This document shows, piece after piece, positions 10,847-56,154 of a DNA stretch of 64,000 nucleotides (its first letter is position 1; each line of letters starts with the position of its first letter). A program made the position numbers and the translations under genes. The notes beneath the pieces were generated by a model. It searched no databases, was not told where the DNA came from, and was given only the letters and a program-made list of their open reading frames with translations. Source of the DNA: Thiobacillus sp. 65-1059 (GTDB lineage Bacteria; Pseudomonadota; Gammaproteobacteria; Burkholderiales; Thiobacillaceae); the NCBI GenBank assembly GCA_001897675.1, contig MKUE01000079.1:1-64000 (forward strand), in the 5' to 3' direction.

Positions 10847-11203
<357 letters not shown>

Positions 11204-46737: not shown

Positions 46738-47682
46738 ATGAGCATTATTGAAAAAGCAGCGGGTAAGATCGGCATCGGCGCACCCCGTCCGGATTCCCCC
46801 GGCAGCAACGGCGACCCCGGCCACGACGCCAGCCTGATCGAAAACGCGCTCAACAAGCAGCGCAGCAGCCATGCCACGCCCTTCGTCGCCACCCCGGTCG
46901 AGCCCATGTTCAGCGCGCCGGGTGGCGATGCGGTGCCGGAAGGCAACAGCCAGGTGCAGTCGATCAATCTGGCGCGCCTGCACCGCATGGGCGTGGTGGC
47001 GCCGGATGCCGAAAAAAGCCAGATCGCCGAAGAGTTCCGCATCATCAAGCGCCCGCTCATTGCCAATGCCTTCGGTCAGGGCGCCGCGCGGGTCAAGAAC
47101 GGCAATCTCATCATGGTCACCAGTTCGCTGCCGGGCGAGGGCAAGAGCTTCTGCGCGATCAACCTCGCCATCTCGATGGCGATGGAAATGGACCGCACCG
47201 TGCTGCTGATCGACGCCGATGTCGCCAAGCCGCGCGTGCCCGAATATCTCGGCATCCATGCCGACAAGGGCTTGCTGGATGTGCTGCAGGACAAGGATCT
47301 CAAGCTGTCCGACGTGCTGATCAAGACCGACATCTCGAAGCTGACGGTGCTGCCGGCCGGCCGCACCTACAAGCGTGCAACCGAACTGCTGGCGAGCGCC
47401 GCCATGACCCGCCTGGTCGAGGACATCGGGAATCGTTATCCCGACCGTATAATCCTGTTCGACTCGCCGCCGCTGCTGGCGACCAGCGAATCGAGCGTGC
47501 TGGCCACCCATATGGGGCAGATCGTCATGGTGGTGGAAGCCGAAAAAACCTCGCAGGAGGCGGTGCGCGAGGCGCTGAGGCATATCCAGTCATGCGAGGT
47601 GGTGGGCATGCTGCTGAACAAGACCACCCCGACCCCGGGCGCAGATTACTACTATGGCTACTATGGCAGTCCCGGAAAATAA
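46738..47682 (+). CDS. XrtA-associated tyrosine autokinase
   Basis: A 314-residue BY-kinase. Walker A SSLPGEGKSFCAINLAISMA, Walker A' LLIDADVAKPRV and Walker B ILFDSPPLL. The C-terminus carries a tyrosine cluster (YYYGYYG) for autophosphorylation. With the Wzz-like protein eight bases upstream it forms the split chain-length kinase pair typical of these loci. The first 90 residues are an unstructured linker. The last 29 bases overlap the next gene. Confidence 0.94.
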   Translation: MSIIEKAAGKIGIGAPRPDSPGSNGDPGHDASLIENALNKQRSSHATPFVATPVEPMFSAPGGDAVPEGNSQVQSINLARLHRMGVVAPDAEKSQIAEEFRIIKRPLIANAFGQGAARVKNGNLIMVTSSLPGEGKSFCAINLAISMAMEMDRTVLLIDADVAKPRVPEYLGIHADKGLLDVLQDKDLKLSDVLIKTDISKLTVLPAGRTYKRATELLASAAMTRLVEDIGNRYPDRIILFDSPPLLATSESSVLATHMGQIVMVVEAEKTSQEAVREALRHIQSCEVVGMLLNKTTPTPGADYYYGYYGSPGK

Positions 47683-49240
47683 GCTCCGCTCGGGCAGCGC
47701 CAGCGCGGCGCCGCACCGGCAAGCTCTCCGCGCAGGCGCTGTTTCCGTTTTCACCGCGTTGGCATTCGCACCTGCCGCCGCCGCCGATTGGCGCTTCGAG
47801 CCGACCCTGAATGCGTCCGCCATTTACACCGACAACGTCAACCAAAGCGCGAGCAAGCCCGAAGACGCGATGATCCTGAGCGCAACCCCGGGCTTCACGC
47901 TGCGCTCCAGGGGCTTGCGCCGGGCGCAGGCCACGCTGCAATATGGCCTGACCGGCGTGGCGCGTTTCGGCGGCGACACCAGCGACGACCTCTACCACAA
48001 CCTCAATGCCGCCGGCAAAGCCGAACTGGTCGAGGATTTCCTGTTCGTCGACGGCAGCGCGCGCGTCTCGCAGGAACTCATCTCCTTGCTGGGCTCGCCC
48101 GCCGACGCCGAAATCAACAACCGCAACCGCGCCACCGTCGGCACCTACTCGATCAGCCCCTACATCCGGAAGCGCCTCGGTACCTTCGCCAACGCGCAGG
48201 CGCGCTACACCGCCAGCGGCGCGATTTTCGAGAACGACGTCGCCGCCAATTCCAACGCGAATTCGTTCAGCGCGGGGCTGAACAGCGGCACCCGCTTCGA
48301 CGATCTCAGCTGGGGGCTCAATTACTCCATCCGCAAGGCGCAAAACCGCAGTGCCGTGGATACCACCTTCGAACGCGCCAGCGCCACCGCAGGCTATGCG
48401 CTGACCCGCAAATTCCGCGTGTTCGGCTCGGTCGGCCAGGACTGGAACGATTACCTCAGCACCAGCGGAACCAGCGGTTCCTCCTACAGCGCCGGCTTCG
48501 GCTGGTCGCCCACGCGCCGCACCAGCGTCGAGGCTTCGGCGGGCGAGCGCTATTTCGGCCGCACCTTTAGCCTTGCCGGCAGCCACCGCACGCGCTCGTC
48601 AAACTGGAACCTGCGTTATTCCGAGGATGTTGGCGACATCACGCAGCAGTTGCTGGAAGAAAGCAGCAAGTTGTTTTTTGTGTGCGAAACATTTCCTTTT
48701 CTGCGGCCTGCCGCCGACCTCGCAGAGCTGTCTCCGGCGGGTTGTTGGGGGCCCTATACGGCAGGGCAGATAATAAGCAGAAGCAATTTGCCGGACCCGG
48801 TTCTGGTCGCCCTTGGCCTGAAGAACATCGGCATTACCAAGGGCGTTTACATCATCAAGAGCCTGACGGCCGGGGTGTCGTGGAATCTTGGCCGATTCGA
48901 TTTCGGGCTGTCGGCATACGATACCAAGCGTCTCTATCAGGCGCTGCGCGACGCGCAGGACCATGTTCAGGGCGTGATCGGCTCCGTCAGCTATCGCTTG
49001 ACTCCCCAGACCACGGCCAACAGCAGCCTGTCGCTCAGCCGCAATAGCCTGGACAGCGCAGTGACGGGCGGCGGGGCCCGGGAGGACGGCATTCTCAGCT
49101 TCAGCCTTGGCCTCAACCGCCGTTTCACCGACCAGCTCAACGGCGCGCTGGTTTTCCGCCATACTCGACGGGATTCAAACGCCGCGAATTCAGACTACGA
49201 CGAGAACCGGCTCACGGCTACGGTCGGCATGCGCTTCTGA
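47654..49240 (+). CDS. XrtA-system outer-membrane beta-barrel protein (TIGR03016-like)
   Basis: A 528-residue exported protein. The N-terminus has a poorly typical leader with a hydrophobic stretch (GAVSVFTALAFAPAAAA) before DWRFEPTLNASAIYTDNVNQS. The remainder is built of alternating beta strands (LRSRGLRRAQATLQYGLTG, SWGLNYSIRKAQNRSAVD, LGLNRRFTDQLNGALVFRHTRR) that end in a terminal Phe (VGMRF), typical for outer-membrane barrels. A protein of this type follows the tyrosine kinase in many PEP-CTERM EPS loci and may be the outer-membrane pore or assembly factor. Starts at 47654 or 47663; both overlap the kinase gene. Confidence 0.85.
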   Translation: MATMAVPENKLRSGSASAAPHRQALRAGAVSVFTALAFAPAAAADWRFEPTLNASAIYTDNVNQSASKPEDAMILSATPGFTLRSRGLRRAQATLQYGLTGVARFGGDTSDDLYHNLNAAGKAELVEDFLFVDGSARVSQELISLLGSPADAEINNRNRATVGTYSISPYIRKRLGTFANAQARYTASGAIFENDVAANSNANSFSAGLNSGTRFDDLSWGLNYSIRKAQNRSAVDTTFERASATAGYALTRKFRVFGSVGQDWNDYLSTSGTSGSSYSAGFGWSPTRRTSVEASAGERYFGRTFSLAGSHRTRSSNWNLRYSEDVGDITQQLLEESSKLFFVCETFPFLRPAADLAELSPAGCWGPYTAGQIISRSNLPDPVLVALGLKNIGITKGVYIIKSLTAGVSWNLGRFDFGLSAYDTKRLYQALRDAQDHVQGVIGSVSYRLTPQTTANSSLSLSRNSLDSAVTGGGAREDGILSFSLGLNRRFTDQLNGALVFRHTRRDSNAANSDYDENRLTATVGMRF

Positions 49241-50361: not shown

Positions 50362-51465
50362 ATGACCCAGGTTTTATGCGTCGCGGGCGCACGTCCCAAT
50401 TTCATGAAAATCGCGCCGGTGATGGCGGCGCTGGCCGAGACCGGCATCGCTGCGCAGCTGCTGCACACCGGCCAGCATTACGACGCGGCGATGAGCGACA
50501 GCTTTTTTGCCGATCTCGGCATTCCGCGCCCGGATCACCATCTGGAAGTCGGCTCCGGCAGCCACGCGGTGCAGACTGCCGAAGTGATGCGACGCTTCGA
50601 GCCGGTGCTCGGCAGCGTGCAGCCGCAGGCGGTGCTGGTGGTGGGCGACGTCAACTCCACCCTCGCCTGCGCGCTGGTGGCGGCCAAGCGCGGCGTGCGC
50701 GTGATCCATGTCGAGGCCGGCCTGCGCAGCTACGACCGCAGCATGCCGGAAGAGATCAACCGCGTGCTGACCGACCAGATTTCCGATTTGCTGTTCACTA
50801 CGGAGAGGAGCGCGCTCGCCAACCTGCAGCGTGAAGGCATCGATCCCGCACGCGTCGAGTTCGTCGGCAACGTGATGATCGATACCCTGCACCGCAATCT
50901 CGAGCGAGCGGTGCCGGGCAGCCGGACCCTCGGCACGGCGCTGCCGCAGTATGCGGTGCTGACGCTGCACCGCCCGTCCAACGTCGACGACCCGGCCACG
51001 CTCGCCGCGCTGCTGGATGCGGTCGGCGAAATCAATCGCCGCCTGCCGGTCGTCATGCCCCTGCATCCGCGCACGCGCAGCAACATCGAGAAATTCGGCC
51101 TCACCGCCGGACTCGATGGCCTGCATGTCCTGCCGCCGCTGGGGTATCTGGAAATGCTCGGGCTGCTGCGCGACGCCAAACTGGTGCTGACCGACTCCGG
51201 CGGCATCCAGGAAGAGACCACGGCGCTCGGCGTGCCTTGCCTCACCTTGCGTGAAAATACCGAGCGCCCGATCACGATTGCCGAGGGCACCAATACCCTG
51301 GTCGGCCCCGATCCCGCGGCGATCCGGGCTGCGTTCGGCGAGGTGATGGCGGACGGCGGCAAGAGCGGGCGCATCCCCGAATACTGGGATGGCCGCGCGG
51401 CGATGCGCATTGCCCACACGCTGAAGGGCTGGCTGCCGATGCAGAAAGGAATCCGGGCCGCCTGA
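50362..51465 (+). CDS. wecB: UDP-N-acetylglucosamine 2-epimerase (non-hydrolysing)
   Basis: A 367-residue epimerase that makes UDP-ManNAc from UDP-GlcNAc. It shows VAGARPNFMKIAPVMAAL, LLHTGQHYDAAMSDSFF, VHVEAGLRSYDRSMPEEINR, VLTLHRPSNVDD and DSGGIQEETTALGVPCLTLRENTERP. It supplies an N-acetylated sugar for the EPS. The next gene starts directly after the stop. Confidence 0.95.
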   Translation: MTQVLCVAGARPNFMKIAPVMAALAETGIAAQLLHTGQHYDAAMSDSFFADLGIPRPDHHLEVGSGSHAVQTAEVMRRFEPVLGSVQPQAVLVVGDVNSTLACALVAAKRGVRVIHVEAGLRSYDRSMPEEINRVLTDQISDLLFTTERSALANLQREGIDPARVEFVGNVMIDTLHRNLERAVPGSRTLGTALPQYAVLTLHRPSNVDDPATLAALLDAVGEINRRLPVVMPLHPRTRSNIEKFGLTAGLDGLHVLPPLGYLEMLGLLRDAKLVLTDSGGIQEETTALGVPCLTLRENTERPITIAEGTNTLVGPDPAAIRAAFGEVMADGGKSGRIPEYWDGRAAMRIAHTLKGWLPMQKGIRAA

Positions 51466-52319
51466 ATGAAGAACGCCATGTCGATCGACGTCGAGGATTA
51501 TTTCCAGGTGTCGGCGTTCGCGCCGCACATCCGGCGTTCGCGCCGCACATCCGGCGCGAAGACTGGGACACGCTGCCGTGCCGGGTCGAGCGCAACGTCG
51601 ATGCCATTCTCGGCCTGCTCGACGAGGCCGACGCCAAGGCCACCTTCTTCACCCTCGGCTGGATCGCCGAACGCTATCCGCAGCTGGTGCGCCGCATCGT
51701 CGACAACGGCCACGAACTGGCCAGCCACGGCTACGGCCATCAGCGCGCGTCCGATCTTACGCCGGCCGAATTCCGCGCCGACATCGTCCGCGCCAAGCGC
51801 ATCCTCGAAGACCTCGGCGGTGTCGCCGTGCGCGGCTACCGCGCGCCGAGCTTTTCCATCAACCAGGCGAACTGGTGGGCGGTCGAAGAGCTGGAAAACG
51901 CCGGCTATGTATACAGCTCCAGCATTTACCCGGTGCGCCACGATCACTACGGCATGCCCGACGCGCCGCGCTTTCCGCACCGCCCGAATGGCGCGGACGG
52001 CATCCTCGAACTGCCGCCGACCACCCTGCCGCTGCTGGGGCGCAATCTGCCTGCGGCGGGCGGCGGCTGGTTCCGCCTGCTGCCCTACGCGATGTCGCGC
52101 TGGATGCTGCGCCGCGTCAACCGGCAGGATCGGGCGCCGTGCATGTTTTATTTCCACCCGTGGGAACTCGATCCCGGACAGCCGCGCCAGCCGGGGCTGC
52201 CGGCCAGGACGCGCTTCCGCCACTACGTCAACCTGCAGCGCATGCCGGACAGGCTGCGCCGCTTGCTGGACGATTTTGAATGGGACCGCGTCGACCGCGT
52301 GTTCCTGCCTGCCCATTGA
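51466..52319 (+). pseudogene. XrtA-system polysaccharide deacetylase, frameshifted by a 20-bp duplication
   Basis: The first 23 codons read MKNAMSIDVEDYFQVSAFAP, then HIR, the exact start of the PEP-CTERM locus NodB-family deacetylase with its metal/catalytic Asp (DVED). At 51515-51554 a 20-base unit is present twice in tandem and shifts the frame. From there the good sequence continues in the next frame: REDWDTLPCRVERN, TFFTLGWIAERYPQLVRR, the metal motif GHELASHGYGHQ, RGYRAPSFSINQANWW, and the C-terminal FYFHPWELDPGQPR, ending at 52319. Deleting one copy restores a full 277-codon frame. As it stands the product lacks all but the first motif. A start at ATG 51687 would give a fragment without the catalytic Asp. 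Confidence 0.9.
51515..51554 (+). repeat. perfect 20-bp tandem duplication
   Basis: CGTTCGCGCCGCACATCCGG is present at 51515-51534 and again at 51535-51554 with no mismatch. Twenty is not divisible by three, so one copy too many breaks the deacetylase reading frame. Confidence 0.97.
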
Positions 52320-52342
52320 ATACACCCGCCGAACCTCTTGCC

Positions 52343-53386
52343 ATGCCCGCTGCCGCCGCCGAAGTCACGGTGCGGACGCTGCAGGCGAACGACCTCGCGC
52401 GCTGGGATGCGTATGTCCAGGCGCACCCCGACGCGAGCTTTTTCCACCGTGCTGGCTGGAAGCGCGTCATCGAGGATGCGTTCGGCCACCGCAGCCACTT
52501 CCTGCTGGCCGAGCGCGGCGGCGAACTGGCAGGCGTGCTGCCGCTGGTTGAAATCGACAGCCGCCTGTTCGGCCATAGCCTGGGGTCGCTGCCGTTCTGC
52601 GCTTACGGTGGCATCCTGGCCGATCACGACGCGGCCTGGCGCGCACTCGACGAAGCCGCGCAGGCCCTGGCCAGACGGCTCGGGGTCGGCGCGCTCGAAT
52701 ACCGCAACCAGAGCGCGCAGCATGCCCACTGGCCGACCAAGGATCTGTACGTCACGTTCAAGAAGGCCATCGAACCCGAAATCGAGGCCAACATGACGGC
52801 CATTCCGCGCAAGCAGCGCGCGATGGTGAGAAAAGGCATCAAGGCCGGCCTGGTCAGCGAGATCGACGCCGACACCGCCCGCTTCTTCAAAGCCTACTCG
52901 GCGAGCGTGCACCGCTTGGGTACGCCGGTGTTTTCGCGCAAGTTTTTCCGCTTGCTGAAAAGCGAGTTCGGCGACGATTGCGAGGTGCTCACCGTCACGC
53001 TCGATGGCCGGGTGATCTCCAGCGTCATGTCGTTCTATTTCCGCGACGAAGTGCTGCCGTATTACGGTGGCGGGGTGGAGGCGGCGCGGGCGGTGGCGGG
53101 CAACGACTTCATGTACTGGGAAGTGATGCGGCGCGCCTGCGAGCGCGGGCTGAAGGTGTTCGATTTCGGCCGCAGCAAGCGCGGCACCGGCTCGTTCGAT
53201 TTCAAGAAAAACTGGGGCTTCGAGCCGACGCCGCTGTATTACGAGTATTTCCTGGTGGGCGACAAAAGCGTCCCCGAAATCAATCCGCTCAATCCCAAGT
53301 ACCGCCTCTTCATCCAGGCCTGGAAAAAAATGCCGCTGGCACTCGCCAACGTCATCGGGCCGCATATCGTGAAGAACCTGGGGTAG
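52343..53386 (+). CDS. XrtA-associated FemAB-like protein
   Basis: A 347-residue GNAT/FemAB-fold protein. ASFFHRAGWKRVIEDAFGHRSHFLLAERGGELAGVLPLVEI, then the acceptor half with GNDFMYWEVMRRACERGLKVFDFGRSKRGTGSFDFKKNWGF, is typical for the PEP-CTERM locus FemAB family. These proteins are thought to transfer an acyl or aminoacyl group; the substrate is unknown. The ATG at 52343 has a weak ribosome site; a TTG at 52316 that overlaps the deacetylase stop is another option. Confidence 0.88.
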   Translation: MPAAAAEVTVRTLQANDLARWDAYVQAHPDASFFHRAGWKRVIEDAFGHRSHFLLAERGGELAGVLPLVEIDSRLFGHSLGSLPFCAYGGILADHDAAWRALDEAAQALARRLGVGALEYRNQSAQHAHWPTKDLYVTFKKAIEPEIEANMTAIPRKQRAMVRKGIKAGLVSEIDADTARFFKAYSASVHRLGTPVFSRKFFRLLKSEFGDDCEVLTVTLDGRVISSVMSFYFRDEVLPYYGGGVEAARAVAGNDFMYWEVMRRACERGLKVFDFGRSKRGTGSFDFKKNWGFEPTPLYYEYFLVGDKSVPEINPLNPKYRLFIQAWKKMPLALANVIGPHIVKNLG

Positions 53387-53389
53387 GGC

Positions 53390-54610
53390 ATGAAGGAAGG
53401 GCTGCTGTTTCTTGCTCACCGCATTCCGTTTCCGCCCAACAAGGGCGACAAGATCCGCTCGTTCCACCTGTTGCGGCATTTGAACGCACGCTATGAAATC
53501 CATCTCGGCGCCTTCGTCGACGACCCTGCCGACTGGCAGTACCGGGATGCTCTGCAGCCCTACTGCGCATCGCTCAGGCTGCTGCCGCTGCATTCGCGCC
53601 GCGCCAGGCTGGCGAGCCTGGGCGGGCTGTTGACCGGCGAAGCGCTGACGCTGCCGTATTATCGCAGCCGCGAACTCAAACGCTGGGCGACCGGACTGGC
53701 CGCTTCCGGGACGGTGACCCGCGGGCTGGCGTTTTCCTCGGCGATGGCGCAGTTCATGCCGGAAAACCTCGCGCGCCGCGTGCTCGACATGGTCGATGTC
53801 GATTCCGATAAATGGACGCAATACGCGCCGACGCAGCGCTGGCCGCTGTCGTGGGTGTATGCGCGCGAAGGCCGCAGGCTGGCCGAATGGGAGGCGCGGG
53901 CGGCATGCGATTTCGACGCCACGCTGCTGGTGTCGAGCGACGAGGCGGCCCTGCTGCAACAGCGCGTGCCGCTTGCGCGCCACAAGATCGGCGCGTTCGA
54001 GAACGGCGTCGATGCCGACTATTTTTCACCGCTGCGCGACTATCCGGATCCATATCCAGCCGGCGTGCAGGGTGTGGTCTTCACCGGCGCCATGGACTAC
54101 TGGCCGAATGTCGACGCCGTGACCTGGTTCGCCGAGCGGATTTTTCCGGCCATCCGCGACGCGGTCCCGGGCGCGCAGTTCACCATCGTCGGCAGCCGTC
54201 CCGGCGAGGCGGTGCGGGCGCTGGCGCGCCAGCCCGGCGTCGTGGTCACCGGCGGCGTGCCCGACGTGCGGCCTTATCTGGCGCACGCCGCCTGTGCGGT
54301 GGCGCCCTTGCGCATCGCCCGCGGCGTGCAGAACAAGGTGCTCGAAGCCATGGCGATGGCGCGCCCGGTGGTCGCCAGCGCGCAGGCCGCCGAGGGTATC
54401 CGTGCCGAGGCCGGGCGCGATTTCATCCCGGCGCAGGACGAAGCCGGATTCGCCCGCGCGGTGATTGCCCGGCTGCAGGCGCCCGCAGCCGTTGCGGCGG
54501 CGCGCGACTGCATCCTGACCCACTACGACTGGACGCGCAATTTGAGCGCGATCGACGGACTGTTCGAACCGGCGCCGGCCGCTGCCGCTCTGGAGACCTG
54601 CCCCGCATGA
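53390..54610 (+). CDS. XrtA-system glycosyltransferase (TIGR03087-like)
   Basis: A 406-residue GT-B fold glycosyltransferase. It begins LLFLAHRIPFPPNKGDKIRSFHLLRHL, a start seen in the TIGR03087 group, has VLDMVDVDSDKW in the middle and a family 1 type donor domain (VVFTGAMDYWPNVDAVTWFAERI, APLRIARGVQNKVLEAMAMARPVVAS). It adds a sugar to the growing EPS repeat; donor and acceptor are unknown. The stop overlaps the exosortase start. Confidence 0.92.
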   Translation: MKEGLLFLAHRIPFPPNKGDKIRSFHLLRHLNARYEIHLGAFVDDPADWQYRDALQPYCASLRLLPLHSRRARLASLGGLLTGEALTLPYYRSRELKRWATGLAASGTVTRGLAFSSAMAQFMPENLARRVLDMVDVDSDKWTQYAPTQRWPLSWVYAREGRRLAEWEARAACDFDATLLVSSDEAALLQQRVPLARHKIGAFENGVDADYFSPLRDYPDPYPAGVQGVVFTGAMDYWPNVDAVTWFAERIFPAIRDAVPGAQFTIVGSRPGEAVRALARQPGVVVTGGVPDVRPYLAHAACAVAPLRIARGVQNKVLEAMAMARPVVASAQAAEGIRAEAGRDFIPAQDEAGFARAVIARLQAPAAVAAARDCILTHYDWTRNLSAIDGLFEPAPAAAALETCPA

Positions 54611-56154
54611 ACGCCCTGCCCGATTCCCTCCCTTCGACTGCGCGCAACGGCTGGCTGCTGCCGGCTGCGCTGACCAGTGGCGTCCTGCTGCTGCTGGGCG
54701 CCGCGTTCTGGCCGACCGTGCATTCGATGATCGAGGTGTGGGACCGGTCGGAGACCTTCACGCACGGCTACCTGGTGTTTCCCATCAGCGCCTGGCTGGT
54801 CTGGCGCCGGCGCGATGCGTTGGCGCAGATCCGGCCGCGCCCCGATCTGCGCGGGCTGCTGCTGCTGGCGGCGGCCGGCGCCGGCTGGCTGCTGGCCGAT
54901 GCCGGCAGCGTCAACGTCGCTGCGCAATACGCGTTCGTCGCCATGCTGATTGCCGCGGTGTGGTCGCTGCTCGGAGCGGCTTTCGTGCGGGCCGCCTTCT
55001 TCCCGCTGATGTTCCTGCTGTTCGCCGTGCCGATGGGCGAGTTCCTGATCCAGCCGCTGATGGGGGTCACGGCCGATTTCACCGTGGCGATGCTGCAGGC
55101 CAGCGGCATTCCGGTGTACCGCGAAGGCACGTTTTTCAGCATCCCGAGCGGCGACTGGTCGGTGGTCGAAGGCTGCTCCGGCCTGCGCTATCTGATTGCC
55201 TCGGTCACGCTCGGCGTGTTGTACGCCTACCTCACCTACCGTTCGTGGCAACGCCGGCTGCTGTTCTCGCTCGCCGCCATCGTCGTGCCGATCTTCGCCA
55301 ACAGCGGGCGCGCCTATCTGATCGTGATGATCGCCCACCTGTCCGACATGAAGCTGGCGCTGGGCATCGATCATTACATTTACGGCTGGGTGTTTTTCGG
55401 CCTCGTCATGCTGCTGCTGTTCTGGGTCGGCAGTTTCTGGCGCGAAGACGAGCAGCCCGAGCCCGCTGTCGCGTCCGGGCTTGCACCGTCCGCAGACGGC
55501 GCCGCTGCGCGCCCGCTGCTGCCGGTGGCGATCGCGGCGCTGGCGGTGGCCGGCCTGTGGCCGGCCTACGCCGGCTGGCTCGACGCGCGCGCGCTGCCGG
55601 CCATGCCCGCATTGCAGATTCAGGCGCAGGGCGGCTGGCAGCCCGGCGAGGATTTCACCGGCTGGACGCCGCACTGGATCGGTGCCGACCGCCAGCTGCG
55701 CCGCGCCTACACCCAGGCCGGCCGCAACGTGTTGCTCGAACTGAATTACTACGTCACCCAGCGGCAGGATGCCGAACTCATCAACTCGCAGAACTTCATG
55801 ATCCGGCAGAAAGATCCGCTGTGGTCCAACGTCGGCGAAACGCTCGCCACGGTGCAGATCGGCGGCATGGCGCGCCAGGTGCGGCAGGCCAGGCTGCGCG
55901 GCAGCAATGGCCAGCGCCTGCTGGTATGGCAGTGGAACCTGATCGGCCGGCATGCCACCGTCAACGATCAGTTCGCCAAGCTGAGCCTGGCCTTCGAGCG
56001 GGTGCTGCTGCGGCGCGACGACGGCCTGTCGGTGCTGATCGCCACGCCCTACGAGGATGCGGAGATCGAGACCGCGACCGCCGCGCTGGCGCGTTTCGCC
56101 GCAGACATGGAACCCGCGATCGGGCGCGCGCTCGACCGGGTTGACGGGCCGTGA
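54607..56154 (+). CDS. xrtA: exosortase A with C-terminal EpsI domain
   Basis: A 515-residue inner-membrane protein. The exosortase part (about residues 10-290, eight helices) carries the sortase-like catalytic set: Cys190 in VVEGCSGLRYL, Arg235 in FANSGRAYL and His256 in GIDHYIYGWVFFG. The C-terminal 200 residues are an EpsI domain (DFTGWTPHWIGADRQLRRAYTQAGRNVLLELNYY), fused as is usual for XrtA. It should cleave PEP-CTERM proteins and attach them for export. No PEP-CTERM substrate gene is in the window. ATGA overlap with the previous gene. Confidence 0.96.
   Translation: MNALPDSLPSTARNGWLLPAALTSGVLLLLGAAFWPTVHSMIEVWDRSETFTHGYLVFPISAWLVWRRRDALAQIRPRPDLRGLLLLAAAGAGWLLADAGSVNVAAQYAFVAMLIAAVWSLLGAAFVRAAFFPLMFLLFAVPMGEFLIQPLMGVTADFTVAMLQASGIPVYREGTFFSIPSGDWSVVEGCSGLRYLIASVTLGVLYAYLTYRSWQRRLLFSLAAIVVPIFANSGRAYLIVMIAHLSDMKLALGIDHYIYGWVFFGLVMLLLFWVGSFWREDEQPEPAVASGLAPSADGAAARPLLPVAIAALAVAGLWPAYAGWLDARALPAMPALQIQAQGGWQPGEDFTGWTPHWIGADRQLRRAYTQAGRNVLLELNYYVTQRQDAELINSQNFMIRQKDPLWSNVGETLATVQIGGMARQVRQARLRGSNGQRLLVWQWNLIGRHATVNDQFAKLSLAFERVLLRRDDGLSVLIATPYEDAEIETATAALARFAADMEPAIGRALDRVDGP

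What the first reader, a model, noticed from the sequence alone, without database searches (positions are those of the whole stretch)
51466..52319. EPS deacetylase is switched off by a perfect 20-bp tandem duplication
The DNA shows two adjacent identical 20-base copies at 51515-51554. With one copy removed the gene reads through as a complete PEP-CTERM-locus polysaccharide deacetylase; with two copies the frame is lost after 29 codons. The bases after the junction still code for all later motifs without other defects, so the event is recent, or the locus flips between states by slipped-strand mispairing. In that case N-deacetylation of the EPS would be phase-variable. A sequencing or assembly error is the main alternative.
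Basis: seen in the sequence. Interest (0 to 1): 0.75.

Follow-up and report, generated by a model that had tools for sequence, protein, structure and literature searches.

The report
Sugar-modifying gene broken by 20-bp repeat
In this Thiobacillus genome the only gene for an enzyme thought to trim the cell's slime polysaccharide carries an extra 20-base copy that scrambles it; the relatives checked have the intact form, so it looks like a recent copying slip (or an assembly error) rather than a built-in on/off switch.

Summary
Window 51512-51556 is a perfect 20-bp tandem repeat (2.25 copies) in the 5' part of the genome's only XrtA/PEP-CTERM polysaccharide deacetylase gene (TIGR03006). The first 24 codons and the rest of the gene lie in different frames. 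All 110 relative loci read (89 distinct sequences) have one copy and an in-frame gene, including L036 (Thiobacillus sp. 65-1402; 98.6% identical over the gene, probably the same species). The one-copy form has the context expected for slippage: a 5-nt direct repeat (CGGCG) 20 nt apart and a 9-bp palindrome. The remaining 253 codons show no decay (dN/dS 0.06 against L036), though the test is weak. Most likely this is a recent slippage duplication that knocks the gene out and might revert by precise deletion. A dedicated phase-variable locus is not supported: none of the 110 loci varies in length here. An assembly error remains possible (about 0.3), since no reads are available. One correction: there is no early stop; the shifted frame runs 361 codons to 52551, inside the next gene. 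This is an ordinary mutation of a known kind, with pneumococcal capsule genes as the closest precedent.

The parts
51512..51556 (+). perfect 20-bp tandem repeat, 2.25 copies (unit CGGCGTTCGCGCCGCACATC, then CGGCG)
51537..51560 (+). 9-bp perfect palindrome with a 6-nt loop (TTCGCGCCG-CACATC-CGGCGCGAA); also present in the one-copy relative L036 (5004-5027)
51466..51537 (+). N-terminal 24 codons of the deacetylase (MKNAMSIDVEDYFQVSAFAPHIRR), holding D8, E10 and D11, invariant in the 29-sequence alignment of relatives
51534..52319 (+). rest of the deacetylase gene in the other frame; TIGR03006 positions 15-271, Pfam Polysacc_deac_1 and DUF3473; stop 52317-52319
51466..52551 (+). actual reading frame from the normal ATG: 361 codons, out of frame after residue 24, stop inside femAB
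51687..52319 (+). longest ATG/GTG/TTG-started product in the true frame (GTG, 210 aa); lacks the N-terminal aspartate motif and the TFFTLGW stretch
50362..51465 (+). wecB (UDP-GlcNAc 2-epimerase, TIGR00236), intact; its TGA directly abuts the deacetylase ATG
52343..53386 (+). femAB-like XrtA-associated gene (TIGR03019), intact; start codon chosen by me
54604..56154 (+). exosortase A with EpsI domain (TIGR03109, TIGR02914), intact; start position chosen by me

Best explanation
A recent, lineage-specific replication-slippage duplication inactivated the sole XrtA-locus polysaccharide deacetylase. In the one-copy form, CGGCG occurs twice, 20 nt apart, and the second copy lies in the arm of a 9-bp palindrome (shown in the relative L036). 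If the polymerase stalls there, the new strand can slip back onto the first CGGCG and copy 20 nt twice (inferred). Since 20 is not a multiple of 3, ribosomes from the normal start read the wrong frame after residue 24 through to 52551, and no ATG, GTG or TTG start restores the full protein (shown from sequence). Loss of EPS N-deacetylation is inferred from family membership. The two-copy state could revert by precise deletion (inferred from precedent), so the allele is potentially reversible, but nothing indicates a dedicated switch.
For: One copy in 110 of 110 relative loci, 89 distinct sequences, among them L036 at 98.6% nt identity over the gene. One-copy L036 has the 5-nt offset-20 match and the 9-bp palindrome; 3 of 110 loci (2 distinct sequences) have both a match of 5 nt or more and arms of 9 bp or more. 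Under a blind duplication of 20 nt, an extra match of 5 nt or more is expected at 10,976 of 512,981 positions of this genome (2.1%; 0.7% of 7,711 in L036), so 2.25 rather than 2.0 copies favours slippage over random joining. The remaining 253 codons: 10 synonymous and 2 nonsynonymous differences to L036, dN/dS 0.063, four neighbours 0.078-0.196; the window branch has 1 synonymous and 1 nonsynonymous polarised change, 4 ambiguous. No second TIGR03006 gene over cut-off in the genome. In 35 of 35 other genomes with exosortase A over cut-off (of 59 others searched) the deacetylase is full length. No X-XXY-YYZ slippery heptamer before the junction.
Against: No reads. The assembly is a 143-contig draft with 4.05% contamination. 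Its sampled stretches hold more short perfect tandem arrays (11 in 514 kb, 21 per Mb) than two one-contig relatives (6 in 800 kb) or six drafts (4 in 400 kb), a mild excess that could reflect assembly or local sequence. Only one near-identical relative is available. With 2 polarised window-branch changes in the gene, the test for decay has little power. The palindrome alone is weak evidence: 17 such rows occur in the window.
Confidence: 0.6

Rival explanations
1. Assembly artefact: two contig ends that overlap by 20 bases were joined without merging, or a gap at the palindrome was closed wrongly; living cells have one copy and a working gene.
For: The genome is a 143-contig draft; all 110 relative loci have one copy; a 20-base overlap is the kind left by k=21 graph assemblers (recalled); own stretches have a mild excess of short perfect arrays; the gene shows no decay.
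Against: It is the only perfect array of period 16 or more in the 514 kb sampled of this assembly, and in 1.71 Mb sampled over nine genomes of the genus, so no systematic joining fault shows. Blind joining predicts an extra match of 5 nt or more in only 2.1% of cases.
Confidence: 0.3
2. Phase-variable locus: cells flip between one and two copies often enough that EPS deacetylation is heritably switched in the population.
For: Duplications in pneumococcal capsule genes are described as reversible (PMC4243769, passages), and for an insertion of at most 9 bp one paper gives an expected reversion frequency of at most about 1e-5 (PMC4022640, passages). The gene is otherwise undamaged. A palindrome and a direct repeat are present.
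Against: No two-copy allele or length change in 110 relative loci; of 93 genomes over the family cut-off in a class-wide sample of 369 (own included), only this one's main match lacks the N-terminal part. Only 3 of 110 loci share the slippage-prone context. The 1-to-2 step has only 5 nt of homology.
Confidence: 0.08
3. The gene is still expressed as full-length protein through ribosomal frameshifting or an alternative start.
For: Both frames are open through the junction.
Against: No X-XXY-YYZ heptamer in the shifted frame before the junction; the first ATG/GTG/TTG in the true frame is GTG 51687, downstream of the invariant D8/E10/D11 motif; before it only CTG, ATA, ATC or ATT codons, and in that frame the motif is not encoded.
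Confidence: 0.02

Closest known systems
Pneumococcal capsule off-variants by spontaneous sequence duplication (cap3A, cap8E/wchA, tts; Waite et al. 2001, 2003)
   Same: A spontaneous duplication inside a surface-polysaccharide gene turns it off and is described as reversible. Seen as citing passages and reference entries in PMC4243769 and PMC4022640; the originals were not read.
   Different: There reversion and phenotype were reported; here only one assembled sequence exists, and the gene is thought to modify rather than make the polymer. Different organism and gene.
icaC phase variation in Staphylococcus aureus (PMC4117637, abstract and passages)
   Same: Repeat-number change, attributed to slipped-strand mispairing, shifts the frame of a polysaccharide gene; RecA-independent and reversible there.
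   Different: A tetranucleotide tract that varies in 9 clinical isolates (about 9%) of the genomes they examined, versus a single two-copy 20-bp event that none of 110 relative loci shares.
Microhomology-mediated tandem duplications (MTD; ssp1 example in review PMC13207564, passages; the primary paper was not held)
   Same: A duplication between short direct repeats leaves two copies in tandem plus the repeat, and is described as inherently unstable and reversible.
   Different: Described there for fungi; the formation routes given (stalled replication and repair) need not be those of bacterial slippage.

Membership tests
XrtA-system polysaccharide deacetylase (TIGR03006) | match over the curated cut-off of 276.2 bits | tested here: met
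   431.1 bits for 51534-52304 in one frame; the intact relative L036 466.4 bits
XrtA-system polysaccharide deacetylase (TIGR03006) | located in an exosortase A / EPS cluster | tested here: met
   TIGR03027, 03007, 03016, 03015, wecB (TIGR00236), 03019, 03087, 03109 and 03088 all match over their cut-offs in the window
XrtA-system polysaccharide deacetylase (TIGR03006) | complete catalytic domain in one frame | tested here: not met
   N-terminal motif and remainder in different frames: a broken member
CE4 / NodB-fold deacetylases | NodB-like fold | tested here: met
   For the intact relative L036, not the broken gene: model mean pLDDT 85.4, best PDB match 3rxz, a putative polysaccharide deacetylase, E 1.6e-12. 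Strand 2-9 and D8/E10/D11 lie in the severed part
CE4 / NodB-fold deacetylases | deacetylase activity on the EPS | not testable with these tools
   needs biochemistry
Phase-variable (contingency) locus | copy-number variation among relatives | tested here: not met
   0 of 110 relative loci with two copies; the one near-identical genome, L036, has one copy
Phase-variable (contingency) locus | reversible switching within a population at measurable frequency | not testable with these tools
   needs clones or reads
Slippage / microhomology tandem duplication | short direct repeat at both ends of the duplicated segment in the one-copy form | tested here: met
   CGGCG at offset 20 in L036

The most novel reading that the evidence does not exclude
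The two-copy allele is a natural, reversible OFF state of EPS deacetylation in an environmental sulfur oxidiser, common enough to dominate the assembled population: tandem-duplication phase variation acting on an XrtA/PEP-CTERM polysaccharide-modifying enzyme.
Probability: 0.08. Interest if true: 0.5.

Novelty: new member of a known kind. Interest (0 to 1): 0.22.

Why it matters
If real, it is a clean example of how one slippage event at a palindrome with a 5-nt repeat can silence a polysaccharide-modifying gene without an early stop, leaving an allele that may revert. It also warns that draft-genome annotation may call such a gene frameshifted or absent. It does not establish a new switching system.

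Tried and rejected
Second functional copy: the genome's other two TIGR03006 matches are weak (22.6 and 19.1 bits, cut-off 276.2) and partial. Alternative start or -1 frameshift site: none found (only the X-XXY-YYZ pattern was scanned). Repeat as part of a dispersed family: the unit is not elsewhere in the genome within 2 mismatches. Recurrent hotspot: 0 of 110 loci, and no other of 93 over-cut-off genomes in the class sample. That search used E <= 1e-30, so a short severed N-terminal piece would not be listed, but every other over-cut-off row starts at model position 1 or 2. G263 (1-213) is cut by a contig end. Rows below the cut-off, among them G244 with two in-frame stops and G170 at a contig end, were not examined. 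Gradual decay: no sign, but the test has little power.

Literature: titles and abstract starts listed showed no study of the XrtA deacetylase's effect; most of those papers were not opened. PMC9850573 has 0 occurrences of 'deacetylase'. Searches looked for duplication or slippage precedents. Fold search with 'pdb_via' was not available.

Full report
What is there. The window is bases 1-64000 of contig C79 (135,022 bp) of a 2.9-Mb, 143-contig draft. Its nearest named relatives are mostly MAGs labelled Thiobacillus. Bases 51512-51556 are a perfect tandem repeat of a 20-bp unit, 2.25 copies. The 25-nt self-match at offset 20 exceeds chance: the longest in 100 simulations of 64 kb was 16 nt.

The gene. 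It starts at ATG 51466, directly after the wecB stop, within an exosortase A (XrtA/PEP-CTERM) EPS cluster. Nine neighbouring genes between 44511 and 57278 were scanned, and each matches its NCBIfam family over the cut-off; the ORF ending at 47682 was not scanned. Three PEP-CTERM motif matches over cut-off exist elsewhere in the genome. The deacetylase model TIGR03006 matches in two pieces, positions 1-24 in one frame and 15-271 in another, and nothing else in the genome comes near the cut-off. From the normal start the frame is lost after residue 24, but no early stop follows: the shifted frame is open for 361 codons to 52551, inside femAB. In the true frame the first ATG/GTG/TTG is GTG 51687, which would give a 210-aa product without the N-terminal motif D8/E10/D11. 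These residues are invariant in 29 aligned relatives. In the predicted structure of the intact relative L036, D8 lies in the first strand (residues 2-9) and E10 and D11 directly follow it. The model's best PDB matches are CE4-type polysaccharide deacetylases. That these residues include the catalytic base and a metal ligand is recalled from CE4 biochemistry and was not tested.

Ancestral state. I read the site in 110 relative loci: 30 (of 38 other genomes with a full-length match there) and the 80 kept (of 570 found). These hold 89 distinct sequences, 21 of them appearing twice. All 110 have one copy and the motif in frame. The nearest, L036 (Thiobacillus sp. 65-1402), is 96.3-98.6% identical over the ATPase, wecB, deacetylase, femAB and (partial) glycosyltransferase genes, but only 78% over the TIGR03016 gene. 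The nearest of the 59 other genomes is 89% at wecB, so L036 is probably the same species as the window (inferred; ANI not computed). Across the deacetylase the window differs from L036 by 12 substitutions and the 20-bp insertion. Of 60 genomes (own included), exosortase A is over cut-off in 36; the 35 others all carry a full-length deacetylase. In a class-wide sample of 369 genomes, 93 are over the deacetylase cut-off and only this one's main match lacks the N-terminal part.

How it arose. One-copy L036 has CGGCG at both ends of the 20-nt stretch, and a 9-bp perfect palindrome with a 6-nt loop covers the second copy. A match of 5 nt or more at offset 20 together with palindrome arms of 9 bp or more occurs in only 3 of 110 loci (L010, L036, L041; L010 and L041 are identical). 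This is a context expected for slipped-strand duplication. A blind 20-nt duplication would show 5 or more extra matching bases at 2.1% of 512,981 positions in this genome. Palindromes of this size are not rare (17 rows in the window), so the palindrome alone is weak evidence.

Age and selection. The two copies are identical. Against L036 the remaining 253 codons have 10 synonymous and 2 nonsynonymous differences (dN/dS 0.063; four neighbours 0.078-0.196). Polarised with nine outgroups, the window branch has 1 synonymous and 1 nonsynonymous change, the L036 branch 6 and 0, with 4 ambiguous. This fits a recent event, or an artefact, but has little power.

Artefact or real. There are no reads. 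In 513,921 bases of this assembly (window plus 30 stretches), this is the only perfect array with period 16 or more; none occurs in 800 kb of two one-contig relatives or 400 kb of six drafts. Against my reading, arrays of period 10 or more are denser here (11, or 21 per Mb) than there (6 and 4, or 7.5 and 10 per Mb). A 20-base unmerged overlap between contig ends is a possible assembly fault (recalled). I put an artefact at about 0.3.

Switch or accident. Duplications in pneumococcal capsule genes are described as switching the polysaccharide off reversibly (citing passages in PMC4243769, and PMC4022640; the latter gives an expected reversion of at most about 1e-5 for an insertion of at most 9 bp). 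S. aureus icaC does this with a tetranucleotide tract (PMC4117637, abstract and passages). E. coli deletes 101-bp tandem repeats without RecA (PMC8378479, passages). So reversion of the two-copy state is plausible. Repeated forward switching is not supported: none of the 110 loci varies, and the forward step rests on 5 nt.

Noticed in passing
L036 6858-6949 versus window 53386-53390: L036 has 92 extra bases between femAB and the next glycosyltransferase, including a palindromic CCTCTCCC...GGGAGAGG-like stretch; a search of 514 kb of the window's genome found only one 16-base match.
   Followed up: partly
window 47654-49240 versus L036: The TIGR03016 outer-membrane gene is only 78% identical to L036 over aligned bases while its neighbours are 96-99%; both have open frames, which suggests allele exchange.
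   Followed up: partly
window plus 30 stretches of its genome (L116-L135, L156-L165): Short perfect tandem arrays (period 10 or more) are about two to three times denser than in stretches of eight relatives.
   Followed up: partly
L010 and L041, same site: These identical one-copy relatives share the same 5-nt repeat plus 9-bp palindrome context, and could be used to look for independent slippage.
   Followed up: no
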